Part shown: one piece after another, positions 1 through 40,217 of the stretch
Layout of the letters: every line of letters begins with the position of its first letter
Numbering within the stretch: the stretch's first letter is position 1
IMG/VR virus record: IMGVR_UViG_3300033388_002556
Coordinates: 1-40,989 of that record
Reading direction: 5' to 3' (one strand)
Origin: a virus
Length of the DNA: 40,989 bases
Made by a program: the position numbers and the translations under genes
The notes under the pieces: generated by a model
The model's input: the letters and a program-made list of their open reading frames with translations, nothing else
Databases searched by the model: none
What the model was told of the DNA's origin: nothing

Positions 1-157
1 CCGTCACTGGAATCATTTAAAATTAACAGAGTTTCAACTAGCTAATGCCGGTGTAAATTACCACTCCTTGATAATGGGAAAACCAGTTGTAGACTATTAC
101 GTCGACGATAAAGCAATCAGGCCAGACGAATTTCTAAAACTAGAGGTAAATTCATGA
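1..157 (+). CDS. C-terminal part of a HAD-like hydrolase (partial at window edge)
   Basis: An open frame enters from the left edge (codons from base 2) and stops at the TGA that overlaps the next ATG. The visible 51 residues end with MGKPVVDYYVDDKAI, which resembles the GKP...D.YIDD block near the C-terminus of small HAD-superfamily proteins found in sugar-nucleotide or polysaccharide gene sets. The N-terminal DxD motif is not in view. Read across the window ends as if circular, the frame stays open back to about 40901 and gives a plausible continuation, but without an ATG, GTG or TTG start. Its neighbour is a glycosyltransferase-like gene, which fits a sugar-related role. The family call rests on one short motif. 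Confidence 0.5.
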   Translation, partial: RHWNHLKLTEFQLANAGVNYHSLIMGKPVVDYYVDDKAIRPDEFLKLEVNS

Positions 158-768
158 TTCCAGTATACATCCTAATCCGCACAGCGGGCCGCCCCAAATT
201 TTTCGCTAAATGTATGGCCAGCATAAAAACCCAGACTTATCCAAACATAACTACGATTGTACATTCCGACAATCCCCGTGACAAATATGTCAAGGGCGAT
301 ATAATAGTAAAATCTCCCCGAAATATGTCTGCCGGCCGCGGATTTTTTAACCTATACTGTAATACTTTATTAAAAGCAATTCCCCCGGGGCCAGGCTGGT
401 ATCACTTTATAGATGACGACGACATCTATGCCAGTCCGGATGTTATAGAAAAATTTGTTAAAAATTCCCTGGAAACACATATAAATGTTGCCCGCGTCCA
501 GCGGTGGAGCGGCGCGATCTGGCCAAAAGCCTGGAAAGGCCAAAAGATTTTTCAAACGGAATGTTTTTTGCTGCATACTAAATATAAGAATTTAGGGAAA
601 TGGCCTTCTAAGAAAGGCGGAGATCATAGCTACACAAAACAAATTACTAAAAAATTACCAATTAACTGGATTGAAAATTTACTGGTTTGTAAAGCTCAAC
701 AGGGAAAAGGGCGGGGGCTCCGGCTAGATTTAGGCGTTTCGATGCCGCCGAAAAAGAGGAAAAAATAA
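154..768 (+). CDS. Glycosyltransferase-like (GT-A type) protein, copy 1
   Basis: The 204-residue product starts like a family 2 glycosyltransferase (PVYILIRTAGRP, then IKTQTYPNI and IVHSD) and has an acidic HFIDDDD motif near residue 85 suited to binding a metal and a nucleotide sugar. A conserved QITKKLPINWIENL block follows. It overlaps the upstream HAD-like frame by ATGA. A diverged paralogue lies at 21558-22370; the two align over about 190 residues, but this copy lacks the 80-residue C-terminal extension and ends in a basic PPKKRKK tail. It may modify a virion or host glycan; donor and acceptor are unknown. Confidence 0.7.
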   Translation: MIPVYILIRTAGRPKFFAKCMASIKTQTYPNITTIVHSDNPRDKYVKGDIIVKSPRNMSAGRGFFNLYCNTLLKAIPPGPGWYHFIDDDDIYASPDVIEKFVKNSLETHINVARVQRWSGAIWPKAWKGQKIFQTECFLLHTKYKNLGKWPSKKGGDHSYTKQITKKLPINWIENLLVCKAQQGKGRGLRLDLGVSMPPKKRKK

Positions 769-4336: not shown

Positions 4337-4654
4337 ATGAATGAAAAAAAAGCTTATATTCTAGCCTTAGATCTCTGGATCTGGCATTATGAAAACCCAC
4401 TTACAAATCACGAAGATTATCCATTATTTAAAGAATTAAAATTTTCCAGAATGCAAGGACAGTGCTCCATTTGGAATCATTTTGACAATTGCGAATCGTG
4501 CCCGATGAACATAGATCCCGATTATGGCGGCGGGTGTTTAGACATGATACGCCTAAAAGCAATAGCAATAAGACATCATAATACTACTCGCTACAAGCGA
4601 ATCTGTTCTATTTATATCAATGCGTTTAATAAAAAACTGGAATCGTTTTCATGA
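4337..4654 (+). CDS. Conserved small phage protein, unknown function
   Basis: A 105-residue protein rich in Trp, His and Cys (GQCSIWNHFDNCESCPMNID, then GGGCLDMI), with four cysteines that could bind a metal. A GGTGGCGGCC stretch stands before the ATG. Its stop overlaps the methyltransferase start (ATGA at 4651), so the two are likely co-translated. The 50 bases before it are AT-rich with no clear promoter. Function unknown. Confidence 0.6.
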   Translation: MNEKKAYILALDLWIWHYENPLTNHEDYPLFKELKFSRMQGQCSIWNHFDNCESCPMNIDPDYGGGCLDMIRLKAIAIRHHNTTRYKRICSIYINAFNKKLESFS

Positions 4655-5310
4655 AAATAGAGAAAAATAAAATATTGCTCGGTGACTGCATGGATTTAAT
4701 GGCCGAAATGCCTGATAATTATATTGATTTGGCTATAGTAGATTGTCCTTATGGGACAGGTTGGGACGGTGGCAACATAATAACAAATCCGAAAAGACCC
4801 TGTAGGGATTTTAGATTGAATAATCCTAAATATAAAAAAAAAGAATGGGATGTAAAACCGGATAAAAAATATTTTGATGAATTATTTAAGGTATCAAAAA
4901 ATCAAATAATATGGGGGGGAAATTATTTTATTGATTTTTTGGAATCAACTCCATGTTTTATTTTTTGGGATAAACGATATGAAAATCAAAAGTTTGCTGA
5001 TGGGGAATTAGCTTGGACTTCTTTTAAAACAGGAATAAAAAAATTTACACTTAGCAGCAAGGCAGAGACAAGAGGTGGATTATTGCGTATTCATCCAACT
5101 CAAAAACCGATTGCTCTTTACAGATGGATATTACAAAACTACGTAAAACCAGGCCAACTAATATTAGACACCCATTCCGGAAGCGGCTCCCTTGCCTGTG
5201 CGTGTCACCTAGAAAAATTTGATTTCATCGCCATTGAAAAAGATCCGGATTATCACAAGTCCAGCACAGAGAGATTTGAAACATTAAAGTCTCAAGGCGT
5301 TTTATTTTGA
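4651..5310 (+). CDS. DNA methyltransferase (N6-adenine/N4-cytosine, beta class), intact copy
   Basis: The 219-residue enzyme has the order motif IV, target region, motif I typical of the beta class. It opens with ILLGDCMDLMAEMPDNYIDL, the catalytic motif is DCPYG rather than the usual DPPY, IHPTQKP lies near residue 147, and the SAM-binding DTHSGSGSLACACH lies near 172. It may methylate phage DNA against host restriction or mark origins. A second, damaged copy lies at 39693-40217 with the usual DPPY. The stop overlaps the TTG start of the primase-helicase. The cysteine in DCPY may alter activity. Confidence 0.88.
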   Translation: MKIEKNKILLGDCMDLMAEMPDNYIDLAIVDCPYGTGWDGGNIITNPKRPCRDFRLNNPKYKKKEWDVKPDKKYFDELFKVSKNQIIWGGNYFIDFLESTPCFIFWDKRYENQKFADGELAWTSFKTGIKKFTLSSKAETRGGLLRIHPTQKPIALYRWILQNYVKPGQLILDTHSGSGSLACACHLEKFDFIAIEKDPDYHKSSTERFETLKSQGVLF

Positions 5311-17850: not shown

Positions 17851-19114
17851 AAATCACAACCTCGCGGCCTGCAGGCAGCGTTAATATATCATTCCCGCTC
17901 AATTCATTCGAGGACAAAAATAAATCATAATAAAAATCAGATTCTCCAAGCGATCCATATTCCGTCACGGCAATCTCAAGCGGAGACCGTTCTCTTTTTA
18001 GAATAAATCTTTTTTCTATTTTTAAATTATAAAATTGTGTTATTAAATATTTCAACACTAATGTATACAGATTTATCAATGATGTATAAGTTTGTGTTTC
18101 GGAAAAATATTGAAAATCAATGTCAAGATCTGAAAAATTATCTTGAACCTCGTCAAGTGCAGCTATCGAATTATTAAAAATATCTGTTAAGTTTTCAATG
18201 GCGCTAATTATTTGAGTTCTGGTTGTAAAAATTGAAGTTGCAACAATTTGAGCTATTGCGATTAGCATTATTGTTACATTGAATTCTTGCGCTACTATTG
18301 CATTATAGTCGTCTGGGGTTGTGGCGTCCGGCGTCAATGTAAATATTTCAGTATTTAGATCTGAATATGATGTAAATCTTTGATTAAAATCCTCTGAAAT
18401 ATTTACAGGAGACGTTCCCGTGTCTACTAAAGCATTGCCCATATCTCCGGTGTCTGAGCTATCAACACTATATGCGGCGATTGCATCATCAAGCGCCTTT
18501 CTTGCTGACAAATATGAATCTTCGACAAGTGCATTCGTCGCAACTAATTCGCCGAGAACTTTGTCCATGAACCCAGCAACTTTATTTATCGTATTGATGG
18601 CTGACTGGACTGCCGAATATAAATCAGCCCGCAATTGAGCCAACACCAAAAGAGCGTCATCAATTGCATTCAACGCGGACGATAAAATTGAGGCCGCCAA
18701 TTCATCCGGAGAAATCAACCTGGTACTATTTGCCGGCAATATCCATTCCGTTTGAAATTCCGTATAATTACCATTATCTACCGGGCTCATTATTTCGCGA
18801 GCCGAAATCAATTGTAATATCAAGGGCCCTTTTACTGGGTGTATTACTTCCCATTGTCCGGACTCAGAATCAAGCGCATTAAAAAAATCCTCGGCCTCGC
18901 TGTTATGGAATATACCCTCAAAATAAACATTAAGCGGATATCTGACAGACTTGCTTTCCAAGTCCTGTACAATAGTTCCTTTGAATTTTGGAGAATCGAA
19001 TAGGCCTAATTTTTTCTCAACACTCCGTTCGTTATTTCTCCATAAAGCCGTGAATATATTAAACTGAGGAGAAGTAAATCTTATTTCTTCTTTTAGTTCA
19101 TTTTCCCAGCTCAT
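17843..19114 (-). CDS. DNA circularisation/tail protein (Mu gpN type)
   Basis: A 423-residue protein. The N-terminus matches the 'DNA circulation' domain: MSWENELKEEIRFTSPQF, then KLGLFDSPKFKGTIVQDLE and YPLNVYFEG. Long helices fill the middle and the C-terminus has ERSPLEIAVTEYGSLGESD and ILTLPAGREVVIY. In Mu-like phages this protein belongs to the tail tip or baseplate. It overlaps the tape-measure stop by four bases. Confidence 0.85.
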   Translation of the reverse strand: MSWENELKEEIRFTSPQFNIFTALWRNNERSVEKKLGLFDSPKFKGTIVQDLESKSVRYPLNVYFEGIFHNSEAEDFFNALDSESGQWEVIHPVKGPLILQLISAREIMSPVDNGNYTEFQTEWILPANSTRLISPDELAASILSSALNAIDDALLVLAQLRADLYSAVQSAINTINKVAGFMDKVLGELVATNALVEDSYLSARKALDDAIAAYSVDSSDTGDMGNALVDTGTSPVNISEDFNQRFTSYSDLNTEIFTLTPDATTPDDYNAIVAQEFNVTIMLIAIAQIVATSIFTTRTQIISAIENLTDIFNNSIAALDEVQDNFSDLDIDFQYFSETQTYTSLINLYTLVLKYLITQFYNLKIEKRFILKRERSPLEIAVTEYGSLGESDFYYDLFLSSNELSGNDILTLPAGREVVIYA

Positions 19115-20727
19115 GCATTTGCCCCCACTACATTCATGTTAATCGGATTTGCGCCCTTGACTTTTGAATTTGCGGTTGTACCTTGAGGTGCATTATTTAT
19201 ATTGATGTTTCCATCAAGCTGGACTTTCTGGCCTGCGCCCCTGTTCGGAGCTAATGGATTTGTTGCCCCAACCGCAGAATTTGCCGAATCTTGTAACTGT
19301 TGGGCTTTTTGCGCTAAGTCAGCAAATTGATCCCCTACAAGTGGAAGGCTTGACGCCAATTGTAATAGTTTTATTATTCCGGTTACAACTGAATTGATGG
19401 GGAACATCAAAGCCGTCATGATCATGCCCCCTACCGTGGATAGATATCCCGGTACAACTGCAGCAAAATTAGCAATTGATTCAACAACTAGATCCCAGTT
19501 ACGGGCTATCAAGATCGGAATTGTAATAAATGGCAAAAATATTGCCGCTACCGTTGCAAATATTGGGTTATCAAAAATTGCCGTCCATTCCATAAATTTT
19601 CTTTTTACTAAATCCCAATTTCTATAGAGTAAAATTCCGACCGTAATTAAGGCCGTGATTGCAAGCACTACAAGCCCGATCGGGTTTGCATTAAGCGCGG
19701 CATTCCAAAGCCATTGTTTTATAGTTGCGGCTGTGATGAATTGACGCATCATCCAAAGATATTTAATCCAGCCTATCGCGATGATCGCACCTTGCCACGC
19801 GGCCACGGAAATCAATGCGACCTTCCAGGCTATAAAACCAATAATAATTGGAGGCAATATTTTTACTATCAATTTCAATCCGGTTCCAAGTGTATCAGTA
19901 TCAATTGATCGTACCGCAGTATTTAATATTTTAAATCCATCAATTAAAGCCGGTAATATTTTTGTAGCTATTTCGGCAAGAAATTGATCGAACCGAACGC
20001 CAAGAACTCTTTTTTGATTTGCGAAACTTGTAGAAAGCGTTTTATTGAAATCGCCTTGAGCATCTTTAGAATTTGACATGATAAAATTATACCTTAACAT
20101 AACTTGCTCGGCCTGCGACATACTTTTCCAACTTTTTGTTATTCCTTTTGATAATGCAAATGCGCTTAAATTTGCAATCGTCATGTTAAATCCAAGTTCC
20201 CGTAATGGCTGGGTTGTGCCGGTAACAACAGACTGCATTTTTTCAAAAACTTGTTCGGGTTGCATATTTCTAAAAGATGCATAGTCTCCGGCCAGACCTA
20301 CAAGATCGGTTGTCATTTTCACCAATTGGTCACCGGCAATCCCTGAACTTTTCGCCATTGATCCCAATGTCCCGGTAAACTCTTTTGCTTGCAATTCCGA
20401 TAAACCAAATTTTTCGATAGCTGTTTTTGCAAAATTATTTATGACAGACGCGCCCTTTGTAAAAGTAACATCAACAACATTTTGAACCTCGGTCAAATCC
20501 GATGCAAGTTCAATTGCATTGGCTCCAATTCTAGCAAGCAAAGCCCCGCCAAAAAGAGGGAGCATTCCTTTCAATGAGGTCATCATCCGGCTAGCGCCCT
20601 TATCTGCCTTTAAAAATCCTTTCTGCGCCCGCTGCCCAAATTTATCAACATTTTTTCCCATACGGTTAAATGCAGGGCTCAATTTGTCTTTTGCTGAAAA
20701 AGCTGTCCTTACTGCAAAATCTGGCAT
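19111..20727 (-). CDS. Tail tape measure protein
   Basis: A 538-residue protein. The start (FAVRTAFSAKDKLSPAFNRMGKNVDKF) and the ELASDLTEVQNVVDVTF block near 75 are typical of tape measures of Mu-type tails. Several hydrophobic segments lie in the middle (about residues 290-430), suited to membrane insertion at DNA entry. Gly/Asn-rich tail. At about 540 residues the tail should be short to medium. It starts one base behind the frameshift extension of the chaperone. Confidence 0.88.
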   Translation of the reverse strand: MPDFAVRTAFSAKDKLSPAFNRMGKNVDKFGQRAQKGFLKADKGASRMMTSLKGMLPLFGGALLARIGANAIELASDLTEVQNVVDVTFTKGASVINNFAKTAIEKFGLSELQAKEFTGTLGSMAKSSGIAGDQLVKMTTDLVGLAGDYASFRNMQPEQVFEKMQSVVTGTTQPLRELGFNMTIANLSAFALSKGITKSWKSMSQAEQVMLRYNFIMSNSKDAQGDFNKTLSTSFANQKRVLGVRFDQFLAEIATKILPALIDGFKILNTAVRSIDTDTLGTGLKLIVKILPPIIIGFIAWKVALISVAAWQGAIIAIGWIKYLWMMRQFITAATIKQWLWNAALNANPIGLVVLAITALITVGILLYRNWDLVKRKFMEWTAIFDNPIFATVAAIFLPFITIPILIARNWDLVVESIANFAAVVPGYLSTVGGMIMTALMFPINSVVTGIIKLLQLASSLPLVGDQFADLAQKAQQLQDSANSAVGATNPLAPNRGAGQKVQLDGNININNAPQGTTANSKVKGANPINMNVVGANA

Positions 20728-21308
20728 TTATTTTTTCCCTTTTATTGCATCAGCTTGTTTTTGATCTTCTTTTACCATAAGTTCATGCCACTCGTTCCAT
20801 TCTCTTAGTTCTGCAAATCTCAATTTTTTTATCTCTGATATTTGCTGGCCGCGAAAAAATAGGTGTCCCATCCATTGCCATGCACGGCCTACACTGATAA
20901 AAAAATGAGTCCTAGTACCTCCGCGAGAGAAAGATCAACACCTTTTAATTGTTTTATTGCACCTTCGCCAAGTCCCGAAAGACTCCCCATCAATGCATGA
21001 GCTTTTTGATTTAAAGCGTTAAGATCTTTCCCGTCCATTGCGGCCTTCGCAATTCCATCAATCTCACGATATGTAATTTTTTCACCATTAGATCGTAATG
21101 TCTGAATTACCTTGATCCCTTCCTCAGTTTTTATTTCGAGCCTTTCAAGACGAACGGCTTTGATCAATCTGTCATAACCTTGCATAATAGCTTTTTTGAG
21201 ATCCTTGTCTTCGATTTCTTCAATATCAATTTCGTAATAATCAAACATTTTTTGTAATTCATTTCCGGCATTTTTTTTAGTAAGTTTATATTCTTTTTTT
21301 GGTAGCAT
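20728..21308 (-). CDS. Tail assembly chaperone with -1 frameshifted longer product
   Basis: The zero frame (21308-20889) encodes a 139-residue helical protein (MLPKKEYKLTKKNAGNELQ) ending EVLGLIFLSV. A U UUU UUA heptamer at 20904-20898 lets ribosomes slip back one base just before the stop. The -1 frame then runs on as FISVGRAWQWMGHLFFRG and KLRFAELREWNEWHELMVKE to a TAA at 20730-20728, adding about 57 residues (193 in all). A short and a long chaperone ahead of the tape measure is a hallmark of long-tailed phages. Position between tube and tape measure agrees with Mu gp41. Confidence 0.82.
20898..20904 (-). other. Programmed -1 frameshift slippery site
   Basis: The minus strand reads T TTT TTA in the zero frame, an X XXY YYZ heptamer, 7 bases before the zero-frame stop at 20891-20889. 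The -1 frame stays open up to the tape-measure start. Confidence 0.75.
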
Positions 21309-21310
21309 GA

Positions 21311-21333
21311 TTTGTTACTCCTGTTTTTATTTA
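21311..21333 (-). repeat. 23-base linker repeat, copy after the Acb2-like gene
   Basis: Identical to 21538-21560. On the minus strand it begins with the TAA stop of the Acb2-like gene, contains AGGAG and ends just before the ATG of the tail chaperone. Confidence 0.85.
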
Positions 21334-21537
21334 TTCATTTCTTGCAATTGACGCATTTGCCCAGAATACAGCCTCTTCTATTTTTGTTATTGCAATAGAT
21401 TTTTCTCTTGAATCGCAACAAGTTAGATCTATTTCTTCGGCCAAAACTCTGGCTACACCTCTAATCTTTTCGTATTTTTTTGACTGTCCTTCTTTCGGCG
21501 CATGGTATGTAAATCTACTTGTTAAATCTTCTATCAT
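21331..21537 (-). CDS. acb2: Acb2/Tad1-hairpin-like anti-CBASS cyclic-nucleotide sponge
   Basis: A 68-residue helical protein with RFTYHAPKEGQSKKYEKIR at 8-26 and SREKSIAITKIEEAVFWANASIARN from 43. This is the signature I know from the Acb2 family: a helical hairpin that forms hexamers and binds cyclic di- and trinucleotides, which blocks CBASS signalling. It is not a structural gene, although it lies between tail genes. An AGGAG site is carried in a 23-base linker that also occurs after it. The call is by recalled motif; nucleotide binding is not shown. Confidence 0.78.
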   Translation of the reverse strand: MIEDLTSRFTYHAPKEGQSKKYEKIRGVARVLAEEIDLTCCDSREKSIAITKIEEAVFWANASIARNE

Positions 21538-21560
21538 TTTGTTACTCCTGTTTTTATTTA
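21538..21560 (-). repeat. 23-base linker repeat, copy before the Acb2-like gene
   Basis: Identical to 21311-21333. It begins with the TAA stop of the glycosyltransferase-like gene, contains AGGAG and ends just before the ATG of the Acb2-like gene. The pair frames that gene exactly. Confidence 0.85.
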
Positions 21561-22370
21561 AAATGTATATATTTGTCTCGGCGGTGCGGCGTCCTTGTAT
21601 GTTCCAAAATTCGTAATTTTCGCAACTCCTATTTTCTCCAGCTCCATGGCATTCTTATATGTCATTTTTTTAATTTCCCCTTGAGAAATCCAATTTGCTC
21701 GCGGTCCCCTTTTATGTCTAGAAAATCCAAGCACAAAAACTTTTTCATCAGGCTTAAATATTTTTAAAATAGTTGCCCTTTTTCCGCCCTTGTCAAGTTT
21801 TTTTCCGTGTCCCTTTCCTTCCTGGGCCGTGCATATTAAAAGATTTTCAATCCAGTTTATTGGTAATTTTTTAGTTATCTGTTTACTATAATGATGGTCT
21901 CCGCCTCGATTGCCCCACCATTTCGCTTTTAACTTGTGATCGGCATGAAGAAAAAAACATTCCGTTTGATAACTTTTTTGCGATCCCCAATGGCGAGGCC
22001 AAATTGTTTTATTCCATCTTTGTACGCGGGCGACATTTATATGATCCCGTAATGAATTTTTTACTAATTTTTCTATTACATCCGGGGCTGCATAACCGTC
22101 GTCATCGTCAATAAAATGATACCAGCCAGGCCCCGGGGGAATTGCCCTCAATAATCTATTGTTATAAAGATTGTAAGTCCCATTTCCATAATCCGGACCG
22201 AAAATAGTCCCGTTAATAACTATGTCCCCGGTAACATACTCGTCGCGCGGGTCGTCACTATGCACGATGGTGACTATGTTTTTATACGTTTGATTTTTGA
22301 TAGTTTCCATCATATCGGCAAAAAATAACGGCCTGTTTGATGTGCGAATGAGTATGTATACCGGGTCCAT
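21558..22370 (-). CDS. Glycosyltransferase-like protein, copy 2 (within the tail operon)
   Basis: A 270-residue paralogue of 154-768, sharing PVYILIRT, IKNQTYKNI, the HFIDDDD motif near residue 85, HINVARVQRW and QITKKLPINWIENL. It has an extra C-terminal segment (about residues 195-270) with EKVFVLGFSRHKRGPRANW and ISQGEIKKMTYKNAMELEKIGVAKI. That part resembles the small 'GE...A..L...GVA' accessory domains of virion proteins, so it could tether the enzyme to the tail or target it. It lies between tube and chaperone, where Mu-type phages have no such gene. Confidence 0.68.
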   Translation of the reverse strand: MDPVYILIRTSNRPLFFADMMETIKNQTYKNIVTIVHSDDPRDEYVTGDIVINGTIFGPDYGNGTYNLYNNRLLRAIPPGPGWYHFIDDDDGYAAPDVIEKLVKNSLRDHINVARVQRWNKTIWPRHWGSQKSYQTECFFLHADHKLKAKWWGNRGGDHHYSKQITKKLPINWIENLLICTAQEGKGHGKKLDKGGKRATILKIFKPDEKVFVLGFSRHKRGPRANWISQGEIKKMTYKNAMELEKIGVAKITNFGTYKDAAPPRQIYTF

Positions 22371-22382
22371 AATCTCCTTTTA

Positions 22383-22775
22383 TTAAGGCAAGAACGGCGT
22401 CCATGCATCTTTAGTTTTTGCGGGAATAATCATCAATGTTGATTTTCCCTCTTCACTTTCATAATTTTCAAAATTGATTTGACCAGTCGTTTTGTAAATC
22501 GAACCGTCTGCAAATTCTGCGGAAATTGTTGTATCCGCAATTGAATCCGAAACGCTTTTTAACGCTTCGACCTCCGCGGTAGTGGTTATCAATGTCACGC
22601 TTTCCATCGTTGGAACGCGCCGGGTCATCTTAATCATGGTTTTTCCAGATGTTGGAATCCCTTCTTTTTCAAATTCCGACCGATTAAACGTGATATTTGT
22701 ATCTGCTGCCACATCATAAGTCACTCCACCAATTACCATTTTCCTAAGTGTTCCTGAATTCGGCATATTATTCAC
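22383..22775 (-). CDS. Tail tube protein (Mu gpM type)
   Basis: A 130-residue protein with GTLRKMVIGGVTYDVAADTNITFNRSEFEKEG-type N-terminus and MTRRVPTMESVTLITT near 49, matching tube proteins of Mu-type contractile tails. It follows the sheath gene and overlaps it by eight bases. It would polymerise around the tape measure. Confidence 0.9.
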   Translation of the reverse strand: MNNMPNSGTLRKMVIGGVTYDVAADTNITFNRSEFEKEGIPTSGKTMIKMTRRVPTMESVTLITTTAEVEALKSVSDSIADTTISAEFADGSIYKTTGQINFENYESEEGKSTLMIIPAKTKDAWTPFLP

Positions 22776-24333
22776 CTCCCAAAAGAATTGCTATTGAAGT
22801 GTCAAAAGTTATTACGGTGTTATAAATACCGCCTTCACCGGATAGTATTATCGGGAATTCCATATCAAATCCCGTAAGACCCGCACGAAGAGTAACTTTG
22901 TCACCTTGCTGCAATTCTGACTTTGTATAGCTTGAATTATAAAGCCATGCATTTCCCGCAAATACTTCGGCAAGTGCGACAAGATCGTCAAGTACAGCGT
23001 CAATATCGCGAGCCTTTAATCTACTATTGATATTTGATACATTTGTCGTATCTTCTACAATAGAAATACCCTTCCATTTAGATCTTTCAAAATTTGCCCT
23101 GAAATTATAAAGCACATTCTGGAGTATTGAAATATTTCGCATCGCCCTATAGCCGTTTGACTCGGGGGCCACATCGGTAGGCCTATAAAATGTAATAACA
23201 TTTTGTACTGTCAAAATATTATTTTTTGCAAAAGTAGTACCGACGCCGCCTTTGACTGCTTGATCTCTATTGTCATAATCGTTTGTCCAACGATCCGCTA
23301 TATCGCCAACAAAAACACCGTCAAGGGTTTTGTCAATATATCCCTCTTCGGCCCTATTTGAATTTATAACGCCCATTATGCCAAGTGTCTGGGCTGCGAT
23401 TTCCTGTGGATGATTCGGAGAATCAGGAGCGCAAATTTTGCCGTTTGTTCTGTCGTCTCTTCTTAAGCCTGCAAAGATTAACGCCCCGGCAAGACCAGCG
23501 CTTCCGGATGTAACGTCGCCAATAAGCGAACGAAACGGTCTAGCAATTTCTTTTTTATAGTTTCCTATAAAAGTATTGCCGACTCCGTTATATGTGCTAA
23601 TCGCGTTAAGGGTTGCGGTGTCTGCGCCATATCCATGAATAAGATTTGTAAAATTCTTTTCGTTTTGTCCGTCTCCGGTGCCGAGTGCGTCAAGTGCATC
23701 CTGTATGTCTGGGATTCCGGTTCCGCCTGCCATTATCGTTATGACCGCAACCACGCCAGTCGGCAGCTCTTCGCCTGCATTCAAACTAAACACAAGAGAA
23801 ATAAAATTTCCATAAGTTCCGCCCGATTTGCTTGTTATAGTAATTACTCCAAGCAAGTTGACAGCTTCAATTGACAAATCGTCATCGTCATTTATCGCGT
23901 CTGCCAAAGCCTCACCAATTTCGTCGGCGGTGTCCCCTGCGGCCACGGCGATCGCTGTTCTATCTCCAGCGGAATAAAATGCCAATGTCCCGGCTTGCAC
24001 TCCAGCGCTACCCGACAAATCAACTTCTCCCTCAGCTTGATCCGGATCCGATCCGCCTTCAAGTTGCGGAACAATCCAGGTTTCTACATTTCCCGGCTTA
24101 AATGCTGCCCTCGCTAATCGATGCAACATAAAACCATATCCAGTTTTTCCGGCTACATCCGCGGCAGAAAAAACCCTAATCGGCACCTCGGCAACAATAG
24201 ACGTAAAAGTGTCCTCGTCAAACGTGCCGATTATTACATTTTTTTGTGGTACTACTTGGGCAGAAACGGCGAATTGCTGATTTTCAACAGAAACCAGATT
24301 CCCGGCTGCTAGTGAACTCGGTGTTACTGTCAT
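22768..24333 (-). CDS. Tail sheath protein (Mu gpL type)
   Basis: A 521-residue protein. The start (PSSLAAGNLVSVENQQ), the IGTFDEDTFTSIVAEVPIRVFS segment and the C-terminal DKVTLRAGLTGFDMEFPIILSG block fit Mu-type sheaths, with an inserted strand-rich middle domain (about residues 100-200). With tube, spike and J-like genes it shows that the tail is contractile. Confidence 0.9.
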   Translation of the reverse strand: MTVTPSSLAAGNLVSVENQQFAVSAQVVPQKNVIIGTFDEDTFTSIVAEVPIRVFSAADVAGKTGYGFMLHRLARAAFKPGNVETWIVPQLEGGSDPDQAEGEVDLSGSAGVQAGTLAFYSAGDRTAIAVAAGDTADEIGEALADAINDDDDLSIEAVNLLGVITITSKSGGTYGNFISLVFSLNAGEELPTGVVAVITIMAGGTGIPDIQDALDALGTGDGQNEKNFTNLIHGYGADTATLNAISTYNGVGNTFIGNYKKEIARPFRSLIGDVTSGSAGLAGALIFAGLRRDDRTNGKICAPDSPNHPQEIAAQTLGIMGVINSNRAEEGYIDKTLDGVFVGDIADRWTNDYDNRDQAVKGGVGTTFAKNNILTVQNVITFYRPTDVAPESNGYRAMRNISILQNVLYNFRANFERSKWKGISIVEDTTNVSNINSRLKARDIDAVLDDLVALAEVFAGNAWLYNSSYTKSELQQGDKVTLRAGLTGFDMEFPIILSGEGGIYNTVITFDTSIAILLGGE

Positions 24334-30320: not shown

Positions 30321-30623
30321 TTACACATCCATTATTTTTAGTTCAAAAGGTCCATAAATATCTTTGTCGAAACATTGTACCCAGTATCTATATGAGGCGG
30401 ATTCTGCAAAATCTCCGTCCGCTACGTTGTAATAGGCAATATTATCAGATTTTGATCCGATGAATTCTTTTTCCGTTCCATCGGTATCCAAGTATAAAAT
30501 TTTTACATCGCCGGTAACATCCACGGGATCACCATTTTCGTCAATAACTTCCACGCCAATTTTATAATTATATTCTCCGAGATTTCTTACTGCTATTCCC
30601 AACGGTTTCGCGATCAATTCCAT
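30321..30623 (-). CDS. Ig-like virion-associated protein, unknown
   Basis: A 100-residue beta-rich protein (NYKIGVEVIDENGDPVDVTGD, YRYWVQCFDKDIYGPFELKIM) that looks like a single Ig-type domain. It touches the repeat-containing fibre gene by one base and belongs to the receptor-binding module. Probably an accessory of the fibre. Confidence 0.6.
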   Translation of the reverse strand: MELIAKPLGIAVRNLGEYNYKIGVEVIDENGDPVDVTGDVKILYLDTDGTEKEFIGSKSDNIAYYNVADGDFAESASYRYWVQCFDKDIYGPFELKIMDV

Positions 30624-31354
30624 TATGCCCCTTCCCGTGTGACAATATTCAATTCATCCTGTTTTATAACTTCCAGCAAAATATCTCCTTTTTTTGTGAC
30701 GGTAAAAAATGTAACATTATCAAACTCATCCACGCCGACAAAAGTTAAATCCCCGCTTCCCTCAAAAGCAATTTCACCGGCTGCGGCTAAAACTTTAATA
30801 GAATTTAGAAAAGCGTCTCCACTTATGCCCATTTCGCCGGTTGCACTCAATCCGATCGGCCCTCGCAAATTTGCCGTGCCTTCAATTGCAATTTCGCCGG
30901 TAGCGGACATGCTTATTATTGCTAATATTGCGGCGCCCCCTTCAAAAGCAATTTCACCGGCGGCAACCATGTTTTTTAATGCCGTTAAATCAGCCGCTCC
31001 CTCAAAAGCAATTTCACCGGCGGCAACCATGTTTTTTAATGCCGTTAAATCGGCCGCTCCCTCAAAAGCAATTTCACCGGCGGCAACCATGTTTTTTAAT
31101 GCCGTTAAATCGGCGTCCCCTTCAAAAGCAATTTCGCCAGTCCCGACCATATTGTTTAATGCCGTTAAATCGGCCGCCCCCTCAAAAGCAATTTCACCGG
31201 TCGCGGACATGTCATAAACAATCCCGCCGCCAAAAAGAAATTGATCCTCAATATTTCCGAAATGCCATTGAATATCTGCCTCAACTTGATCCGATCCTGT
31301 TCCGGTTTCGCTTACTATATTGCCCTTGTCCCAATGTGGATCATTTTTTGCCAT
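30623..31354 (-). CDS. Repeat-containing fibre-like protein
   Basis: A 243-residue protein whose middle consists of 20-residue repeats with the core GEIAFEGAADLTALKNMVAA: five near-identical and several diverged units. N- and C-terminal parts are unique (HWDKGNIVSETGTGSDQVEA; VTFFTVTKKGDILLEVIKQ). Such beta-strand repeats build elongated fibre shafts. It lies between the tailspike-like protein and an Ig-like protein. Confidence 0.68.
   Translation of the reverse strand: MAKNDPHWDKGNIVSETGTGSDQVEADIQWHFGNIEDQFLFGGGIVYDMSATGEIAFEGAADLTALNNMVGTGEIAFEGDADLTALKNMVAAGEIAFEGAADLTALKNMVAAGEIAFEGAADLTALKNMVAAGEIAFEGGAAILAIISMSATGEIAIEGTANLRGPIGLSATGEMGISGDAFLNSIKVLAAAGEIAFEGSGDLTFVGVDEFDNVTFFTVTKKGDILLEVIKQDELNIVTREGA
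30940..31210 (-). repeat. Tandem 60-base repeats
   Basis: Four to five almost identical 60-base units in phase with the reading frame, each encoding one 20-residue repeat. Two neighbouring units differ by one base only, so recent expansion is likely. Confidence 0.9.
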
Positions 31355-39692: not shown

Positions 39693-40217
39693 TCAAATCT
39701 CTCTGTGCTGGACTTGTGATAATCCGGGTTTTGCGTAGTTTTGTAAAATCCATCTGTAAAGTTTTATCGGTTTTTGAGTGGGATGAATGCGTTTTTCTCT
39801 TTTTTCATCCTCTATAAAAGCTCCGCTCCATAACTGTTTATATATTCTTGTTGTCCCTTTAATTGAACAATAGGCACATTCCCCATCAGCGCGAGGGCTT
39901 TTCCCCGTCTTTTTGTCCCAGACAATTAGTTGTGAAAATGTTGGTAACCATTTATTAAAATATTGCATCCCCCAAATTATTTGATTTTTACTAATTCTAA
40001 ATAATTCATCAAAATATATTTCGTCTGGAACAAAATCCCATTTTTCAATCATCTCAGAAGTTTTATATGTATTATCTTTATATCCAAACTTATTACCAAA
40101 ACTGTTAAAGATCCCATAAGGCGGATCAACAATAGCCAAATCGATATAATTATCAGGCATTTCGGCCATTAAATCCATGCAGTCACCGAGTAATATTTTA
40201 TTTTTCTCTATTTTCAC
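39693..40217 (-). pseudogene. Truncated second copy of the DNA methyltransferase
   Basis: From a GTG overlapping the terS stop (GTGA), the first 34 residues nearly equal those of the intact enzyme at 4651-5310, with the usual DPPYG motif. The frame shifts after NYAKPG and stops: about 90 bases that encode the SAM-binding DTHSGSGS segment in the intact copy are missing. The following 60 bases again match the 3' end of the intact copy, out of frame. Without motif I it cannot be a working methyltransferase of the normal type; it could still bind DNA. Confidence 0.82.

What the first reader, a model, noticed from the sequence alone, without database searches (positions are those of the whole stretch)
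21311..21560. Acb2-like anti-CBASS gene framed by two identical 23-base linkers
The 68-residue product carries the RFTYH...SREKS...EEAVFWANASIARN signature I know from the Acb2/Tad1-hairpin family of cyclic-nucleotide sponges. On both sides of the gene the same 23 bases occur (21311-21333 and 21538-21560). Each copy holds the stop of the gene before, an AGGAG ribosome site and the spacer to the next ATG. The gene can thus enter or leave as one stop-RBS-gene unit by recombination between repeats, without disturbing the tail operon. Being a late-operon gene, its product would appear late unless another promoter exists, which is odd for an inhibitor of an immune signal.
Basis: partly seen in the sequence, partly recalled or inferred. 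Interest (0 to 1): 0.8.

Follow-up and report, generated by a model that had tools for sequence, protein, structure and literature searches.

The report
Acb2-family gene inserted between repeated linkers
A phage carries, in its tail-building operon, a small recently gained gene for a protein of the Acb2 family, which soaks up the alarm nucleotides of bacterial immunity, and the short signal between neighbouring genes is duplicated exactly on both sides of it, a likely scar of how the gene came in.

Summary
An intact 68-residue gene lies at 21331-21537 (minus strand) between two identical 23-base linkers, the only copies in the window. The product is a confident member of the Acb2/Tad1-hairpin family (PF24729, 71 bits against a cut-off of 27; T4 Acb2 scores the same). 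The predicted fold has T4 Vs.4/Acb2 with cGAMP as its best PDB match, and the ligand-stacking tyrosine is kept.

In 19 related records the glycosyltransferase-like gene and the tail chaperone follow each other with no acb2; in 16 deeper ones tube and chaperone are neighbours. The gene is therefore a recent gain, though no relative carries this linker sequence. The same kind of scar occurs at acb2 in other phages (repeats of at least 10 nt in 7 of 31 environmental loci; 0 of 15 isolate phages). For one of them natural empty alleles show a single copy and no gene.

The late-operon position is not odd: other family members lie among terminase, portal or tail genes. Verdict: new member of a known family, with a good example of small-gene insertion. 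Sponge activity is untested.

The parts
21331..21537 (-). acb2-family gene, 68 aa (Acb2/Tad1 hairpin, PF24729)
   Evidence: PF24729 71.4 bits, cut-off 27; phrog_1454 2e-24; AlphaFold2 pLDDT 90.6; top Foldseek match T4 Vs.4 + cGAMP
21538..21560 (-). upstream 23-bp linker copy: stop of the glycosyltransferase-like gene, AGGAG site, spacer that abuts the acb2 ATG
21311..21333 (-). downstream 23-bp linker copy: stop codon of acb2, AGGAG site, spacer ending 2 nt before the chaperone ATG
21558..22370 (-). gene before: glycosyltransferase-2-like protein (270 aa), older cargo between tail tube and chaperone genes
   Evidence: PF00535 below cut-off, E 5e-4; present in 19 related records with both flanks readable, absent in 16 deeper ones
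20889..21308 (-). gene after: tail assembly chaperone (phrog_4648) with conserved -1 frameshift site at its end
   Evidence: chaperone role inferred from position before the tape measure gene and the frameshift
22383..22775 (-). tail tube gene
   Evidence: phrog_4699 tail tube protein
22768..24333 (-). tail sheath-like gene used to find relatives
   Evidence: 61-77% identity and same gene order in relatives; sheath function inferred from position before the tube gene
19111..20727 (-). tape measure gene
   Evidence: phrog_1535, phrog_8462

Best explanation
acb2 is a recently acquired accessory gene (moron) of the late tail operon. Shown: it lies between a glycosyltransferase-like gene and the tail chaperone gene that are direct neighbours in relatives, and a 23-bp stop-RBS linker is present on both sides of it. 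Each copy ends one gene and starts translation of the next, so the operon stays readable, and one crossover between the copies could remove the gene cleanly (inferred). The most likely route of entry is short-homology or template-switch recombination in the intercistronic linker, which leaves a junction duplication; this is inferred from the empty and filled alleles of another phage. The product most likely assembles, as Acb2 does, into an oligomer of helical hairpins that binds cyclic di- and/or trinucleotides and so starves CBASS-type effectors (inferred from family and residues). It is probably made from the late mRNA together with virion proteins, when capsid-dependent CBASS sensing would matter (inferred).
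For: Profile 71.4 bits, the same score as T4 Acb2. All invariant columns of 31 homologues are kept in the window protein. Y11 aligns with T4 Y8 and PaP2 Y11, R26 with PaP2 K26 and T4 K23; T4 Y8A is reported to disrupt cyclic dinucleotide binding (PMC12657218). Predicted fold: short N-terminal helix plus two antiparallel helices; best PDB matches are T4 Vs.4 with cGAMP, then Tad1. 19 related records have glycosyltransferase-chaperone without acb2, 16 deeper ones tube-chaperone; no PF24729 in 19 whole records of relatives (9, 10), while T4 and PaP2 ring. Linker duplication at acb2 elsewhere: at least 10 nt in 7 of 31 loci against 6 of 213 small ORFs. Natural empty alleles in one lineage, both L018 flanks aligning across a single copy.
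Against: No binding or anti-CBASS assay. The close 68-residue group has, as far as I know, no tested member; the nearest solved relative by sequence is 'Acb2 homolog 43' (28 bits). T4 F82, which stacks on the ligand, is Ala here, but PaP2 Acb2 also has Ala there. Foldseek E 0.2 and VIA Z 6.7 are not decisive alone for a helical hairpin. Linker duplication is absent at acb2 in 13 isolate phages, T4 and PaP2. No relative carries this 23-mer, so the insertion steps here are inferred. The comparison of repeat lengths was made after seeing the pattern.
Confidence: 0.75

Rival explanations
1. The identical linkers were kept or copied by selection (an efficient coupled stop-RBS signal) or by gene conversion between neighbouring linkers, and are not an insertion scar.
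For: Both copies are functional-looking translation signals; spacer lengths differ only by 2 nt.
Against: No other linker of the operon resembles them; relatives' glycosyltransferase-chaperone linkers differ freely. In other phages the duplicated junctions are not always RBS signals: a terminator-like hairpin in L020, the end of a coding region in L018.
Confidence: 0.15
2. The gene was inserted by a mobile element or homing-type cut that makes a target-site duplication of fixed length.
For: Direct repeats at both ends of the insert; one empty site with a single copy.
Against: Repeat lengths range from 10 to 23 nt between lineages; no nuclease or transposase gene lies next to acb2 in the window; the insert in the window is only the 204-bp coding part.
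Confidence: 0.1
3. The protein has the hairpin fold but another role, for instance binding another nucleotide signal (cADPR isomers) or a structural or tail-assembly role, given its place in the tail operon.
For: Tad1, which binds gcADPR, shares the hairpin; the gene lies beside the chaperone and tube genes; the group is untested.
Against: Relatives keep the same tail module without it; homologues lie among DNA-metabolism genes in many phages; Y11 and a basic residue at 26 are kept; the Tad1 beta-sheet domain is absent (68 aa).
Confidence: 0.15

Closest known systems
Acb2 (Vs.4) of phage T4, PDB 7uq2, and Acb2 of Pseudomonas phages PaP2/PaMx33, PDB 8h2x/8h2j
   Same: PF24729 at equal score; fold of one short and two long helices; Tyr at the stacking position and a basic residue at the PaP2 K26 position
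   Different: Shorter (68 against 88-93 aa) because the loop between the long helices lacks about 20 residues; K26 is Arg; T4 F82 is Ala (also Ala in PaP2); sits in a tail operon
phrog_1454 / 'putative phosphomannomutase' small proteins of Paenibacillus, Gordonia and Mycobacterium phages
   Same: Closest homologues among isolate phages, 37-58% identical over most of the length, same RFTYH...SREKS...WANASIARN-type motif
   Different: Mostly in early, DNA-metabolism or accessory regions; no linker duplication
'Acb2 homolog 43' (PDB 9ptq)
   Same: Nearest solved sequence (E 1.5e-5 with the family profile)
   Different: Only 28 bits; lacks the WANASIAR end
Tad1 (Thoeris anti-defence 1)
   Same: Shares the C-terminal helical hairpin
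   Different: Tad1 has an additional N-terminal beta-sheet domain; none here
Mobile promoter-terminator cassettes of T4-type phages (titles cited: Arbiol 2010, Comeau 2014)
   Same: Repeated short intergenic sequences that let small genes shuffle between phages (as I know that work; the papers are not held)
   Different: Here the repeat is a stop-RBS linker with no promoter or stem-loop and occurs only twice in the window

Membership tests
Acb2 (PF24729 Acb2/Tad1 hairpin) | Profile match over the curated cut-off | tested here: met
   71.4 bits against 27, profile positions 1-58 of 58; T4 Acb2 71.4
[quoted passage not shown]
   H2-8, H18-39, H44-66, pLDDT 90.6; T4 Vs.4 is the best of 350,542 chains, TM 0.71 on the query, E 0.2; 8h2x 60 residues at 2.7 A, Z 6.4
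Acb2 (PF24729 Acb2/Tad1 hairpin) | Tyrosine needed for cyclic dinucleotide binding (T4 Y8) | tested here: met
   Y11 aligned with T4 Y8 and PaP2 Y11; role of Y8 from PMC12657218
Acb2 (PF24729 Acb2/Tad1 hairpin) | Basic residue at the PaP2/PaMx33 K26 position (role from own knowledge) | tested here: inconclusive
   R26, invariant in 31 homologues, aligned with PaP2 K26 and T4 K23; whether Arg does the same is unknown
Acb2 of T4 (not family-wide) | Second aromatic stacking residue of T4 (F82) | tested here: not met
   A65 here, but PaP2 Acb2 also has Ala, so this is a feature of T4 and does not define the family
Acb2 (PF24729 Acb2/Tad1 hairpin) | Homo-hexamer | not testable with these tools
   Only single chains could be modelled
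Acb2 (PF24729 Acb2/Tad1 hairpin) | Binds cyclic di-/trinucleotides and blocks CBASS | not testable with these tools
   Needs binding and plaque assays
Tad1 | N-terminal beta-sheet domain before the hairpin | tested here: not met
   68 aa, all-helical model
T4-type mobile promoter/terminator cassettes | Repeated linker carries a promoter and/or stem-loop | tested here: not met
   No excess of promoter-like sites (12 found, 8.7 +/- 3.1 expected); linker does not fold (z 0.87 and -0.62)

The most novel reading that the evidence does not exclude
Small counter-defence genes such as acb2 spread between unrelated phages by a common transposase-free route: recombination in the intercistronic stop-RBS (or terminator) linker that duplicates the junction, so that any small ORF becomes a self-contained linker-gene unit that can be gained and lost without harming even an essential late operon.
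Probability: 0.3. Interest if true: 0.6.

Novelty: new member of a known kind. Interest (0 to 1): 0.4.

Why it matters
It extends the Acb2 sponge family to an uncultured contractile-tailed phage group and to the tail operon. The linker duplication, with natural empty and filled alleles in a second phage lineage, makes the old question of how morons enter phage operons directly testable by comparing alleles. Nucleotide signalling may also be a defence of this phage's host (relatives of the tail module occur in MAGs of bacterium SM23_31 and a Zixiibacteriota bacterium), but the host was not identified.

Tried and rejected
A chance repeat was rejected (longest simulated direct repeat 20 nt). The linker as a common motif of this phage or group was rejected. 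The only exact matches to the 21-mer elsewhere (L051, L052) look like coding sequence of unrelated contigs and were set aside as chance. A promoter or terminator inside the linker was not found. Relatives were searched for the 23-mer or an allele with one copy: none. No close homologue of acb2 shares the window's flanks. L005 against L011 was examined as an empty-site pair, but both carry acb2, so it tells nothing about insertion; a last scan found no further relatives of L005. PADLOC and NCBIfam hold no matching model. The pattern of flanking repeats was tested in a second set (13 isolate phages, T4, PaP2) and did not recur there (0 of 15); with this set added it is 7 of 46 against 6 of 213 small ORFs (Fisher p 0.003). 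This is a lead, not a law.

Full report
Observation. The ORF at 21331-21537 on the minus strand encodes 68 residues. The 23 bases at 21311-21333 and 21538-21560 are identical and have no third copy even with three mismatches. In 100 first-order Markov simulations the longest direct repeat was 20 nt. On the coding strand each copy reads TAAATAAAAACAGGAGTAACAAA, with the stop codon of the previous gene, AGGAG and the spacer. What lies between the copies is exactly the sense codons of acb2; its stop codon is part of the downstream copy.

What the gene is. Pfam PF24729 (Acb2/Tad1 hairpin) matches over its whole length with 71.4 bits against a cut-off of 27, the same score as Vs.4/Acb2 of T4; PHROG 1454 matches at 2e-24. 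Homologues were found in 46 IMG/VR contigs and 322 phage records, the best about 66% identical. In an alignment of 31 sequences all invariant columns (F9, H12, R26, V57, W59, A60, N61, I64) are intact in the window protein. Aligned with T4 and PaP2 Acb2, Y11 falls on T4 Y8 and PaP2 Y11, and R26 on PaP2 K26. T4 Y8A is reported to disrupt cyclic dinucleotide binding (PMC12657218). The second stacking residue of T4, F82, is Ala here and also in PaP2 Acb2. AlphaFold2 gives a short helix and a long hairpin at pLDDT 90.6. Among 350,542 PDB chains the two best Foldseek matches are T4 Vs.4 with cGAMP, followed by Tad1. The scores are modest, as expected for a helical hairpin (Z 6.7 and 6.4 for the two Acb2 structures), so family membership rests mainly on the profile and the residues.

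Where it sits. The window holds a phage with a tail module of the contractile type (sheath-like and tube genes). Terminase, portal, head protease, major head protein, tail tube, tape measure and baseplate genes run leftwards from 41 kb to 13 kb, and recombination and replication genes run rightwards from 1 to 12 kb. acb2 lies between a glycosyltransferase-2-like gene and the tail chaperone gene. The scan for promoters gave no excess over chance, so expression from the late mRNA is the simplest reading. This is not odd for the family. Homologues lie between terminase and portal in Streptomyces phage GiJojo, after portal in Gordonia phage Schomber, upstream of a tail gene and the tape measure gene in L020 and L017, and near terminase or portal-like genes in L029 and L027. 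Many others sit among DNA-metabolism genes. CBASS escape mutations in the major capsid gene are reported (PMC10419184), so a late-made sponge is not pointless; this last step is inference.

Gain in this lineage. Relatives were found with the chaperone and the sheath-like protein. In 19 records with both flanks readable (L048, L049, L050, L053, L054, L055, L056, L058, L067, L070, L071, L073, L077, L078, L079, L081, L093, L101, L127; L070 and L073 look identical here and may be one lineage) the glycosyltransferase-like gene is followed by the chaperone, within 25 nt or overlapping in all but L054, without acb2. L054 carries a different 55-residue membrane-like ORF in the same slot. In 16 deeper relatives (L057, L084-L088, L090-L092, L094, L096, L098-L100, L103, L128) tube and chaperone are direct neighbours. 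PF24729 is absent from the whole records of 19 relatives (9, 10); the same search rings for T4 and PaP2. Most are fragments, so absence elsewhere in those genomes is not proven, but absence from the slot is seen directly. The simplest reading is that the slot first received the glycosyltransferase-like gene and acb2 is a later, lineage-specific gain. None of the relatives has the 23-mer, so the original single-linker allele of this phage was not found.

The same scar elsewhere. When the 40 bases before and after acb2 were compared in 31 environmental loci, a direct repeat of 10 or more bases was present in seven: window 23, L020 19, L018 13, L005 13, L017 11, L004 10, L021 10. Among other ORFs of the same loci it was 11 of 573, or 6 of 213 small ORFs with a ribosome site. 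In the window, L005, L017, L018, L020 and L021 no other linker of the locus matched as well. In the window, L004 and L005 the repeat is a stop-RBS linker; in L020 it is part of an intrinsic-terminator-like hairpin found on both sides; in L018 it spans the end and stop of the upstream gene. A second set (13 isolate phages, T4 and PaP2) showed none; with it the contrast is 7 of 46 against 6 of 213 (Fisher p 0.003). The threshold was chosen after seeing the data, and L017 and L020 are related.

An empty allele. For L018, relatives (L150-L155) whose Sak4 gene and downstream gene are 86-94% identical have the upstream and downstream genes but no acb2 in the slot nor elsewhere in the records. Both flanks of L018 align across one single copy of the repeat region in the examined alleles L150, L151 and L155, AACCAAAAGTAAATAACA, against AACCAAAGATAAC on both sides of acb2 in L018. 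In a third group, L134 and L135 lack the acb2 that L020 and L017 carry between the same two tail genes. Repeat lengths vary from 10 to 23, which speaks against a transposase with fixed target duplication and for short-homology or template-switch recombination. The window phage encodes a RecE-like exonuclease and L018 a Sak4-like annealing protein, which could help; that is inference.

Verdict. The finding is real and well read. The gene is a new member of the Acb2 hairpin family with probable sponge function (untested), gained recently as a moron in a tail operon. The linker duplication is a good example of how such genes may enter; a general route is a plausible but unproven extension.

Noticed in passing
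20889-20905 and 20728-20905 (-), also L048-L056, L067: Conserved ATTTTTTTATC-like slippery run at the end of the tail chaperone gene; the -1 frame stays open for about 50 codons up to the tape measure gene, a lambda G/GT-like programmed frameshift.
   Followed up: partly
4651-5310 (+) and 39693-40217 (-): Two DNA methyltransferase genes in opposite orientation share exact inverted repeats of 66, 47 and 25 bp (5245-5310/39662-39727; 4678-4724/40144-40190; 4652-4676/40192-40216); recombination between them could invert most of the genome or swap alleles.
   Followed up: no
154-768 (+) and 21558-22370 (-): A second glycosyltransferase-2-like gene, 64% identical to the one beside acb2 but C-terminally shorter, lies at the left end of the window.
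   Followed up: no
30623-31354 (-): Protein with repeated 60-bp units (AAGEIAFEGAADLTALKNMV), exact DNA repeats up to 62 bp.
   Followed up: no
L054:5832-5999: A different 55-residue membrane-like ORF occupies the same glycosyltransferase-chaperone slot in a relative, so the slot takes varied cargo.
   Followed up: partly
L007:7525-7725, L015:7795-7968: Other small ORFs with 14-15 nt direct repeats at both ends, suggesting that linker duplication is not special to acb2.
   Followed up: no
L131, L132 and many Paenibacillus phage records: Acb2-hairpin homologues are annotated as 'putative phosphomannomutase', apparently a propagated misannotation.
   Followed up: no
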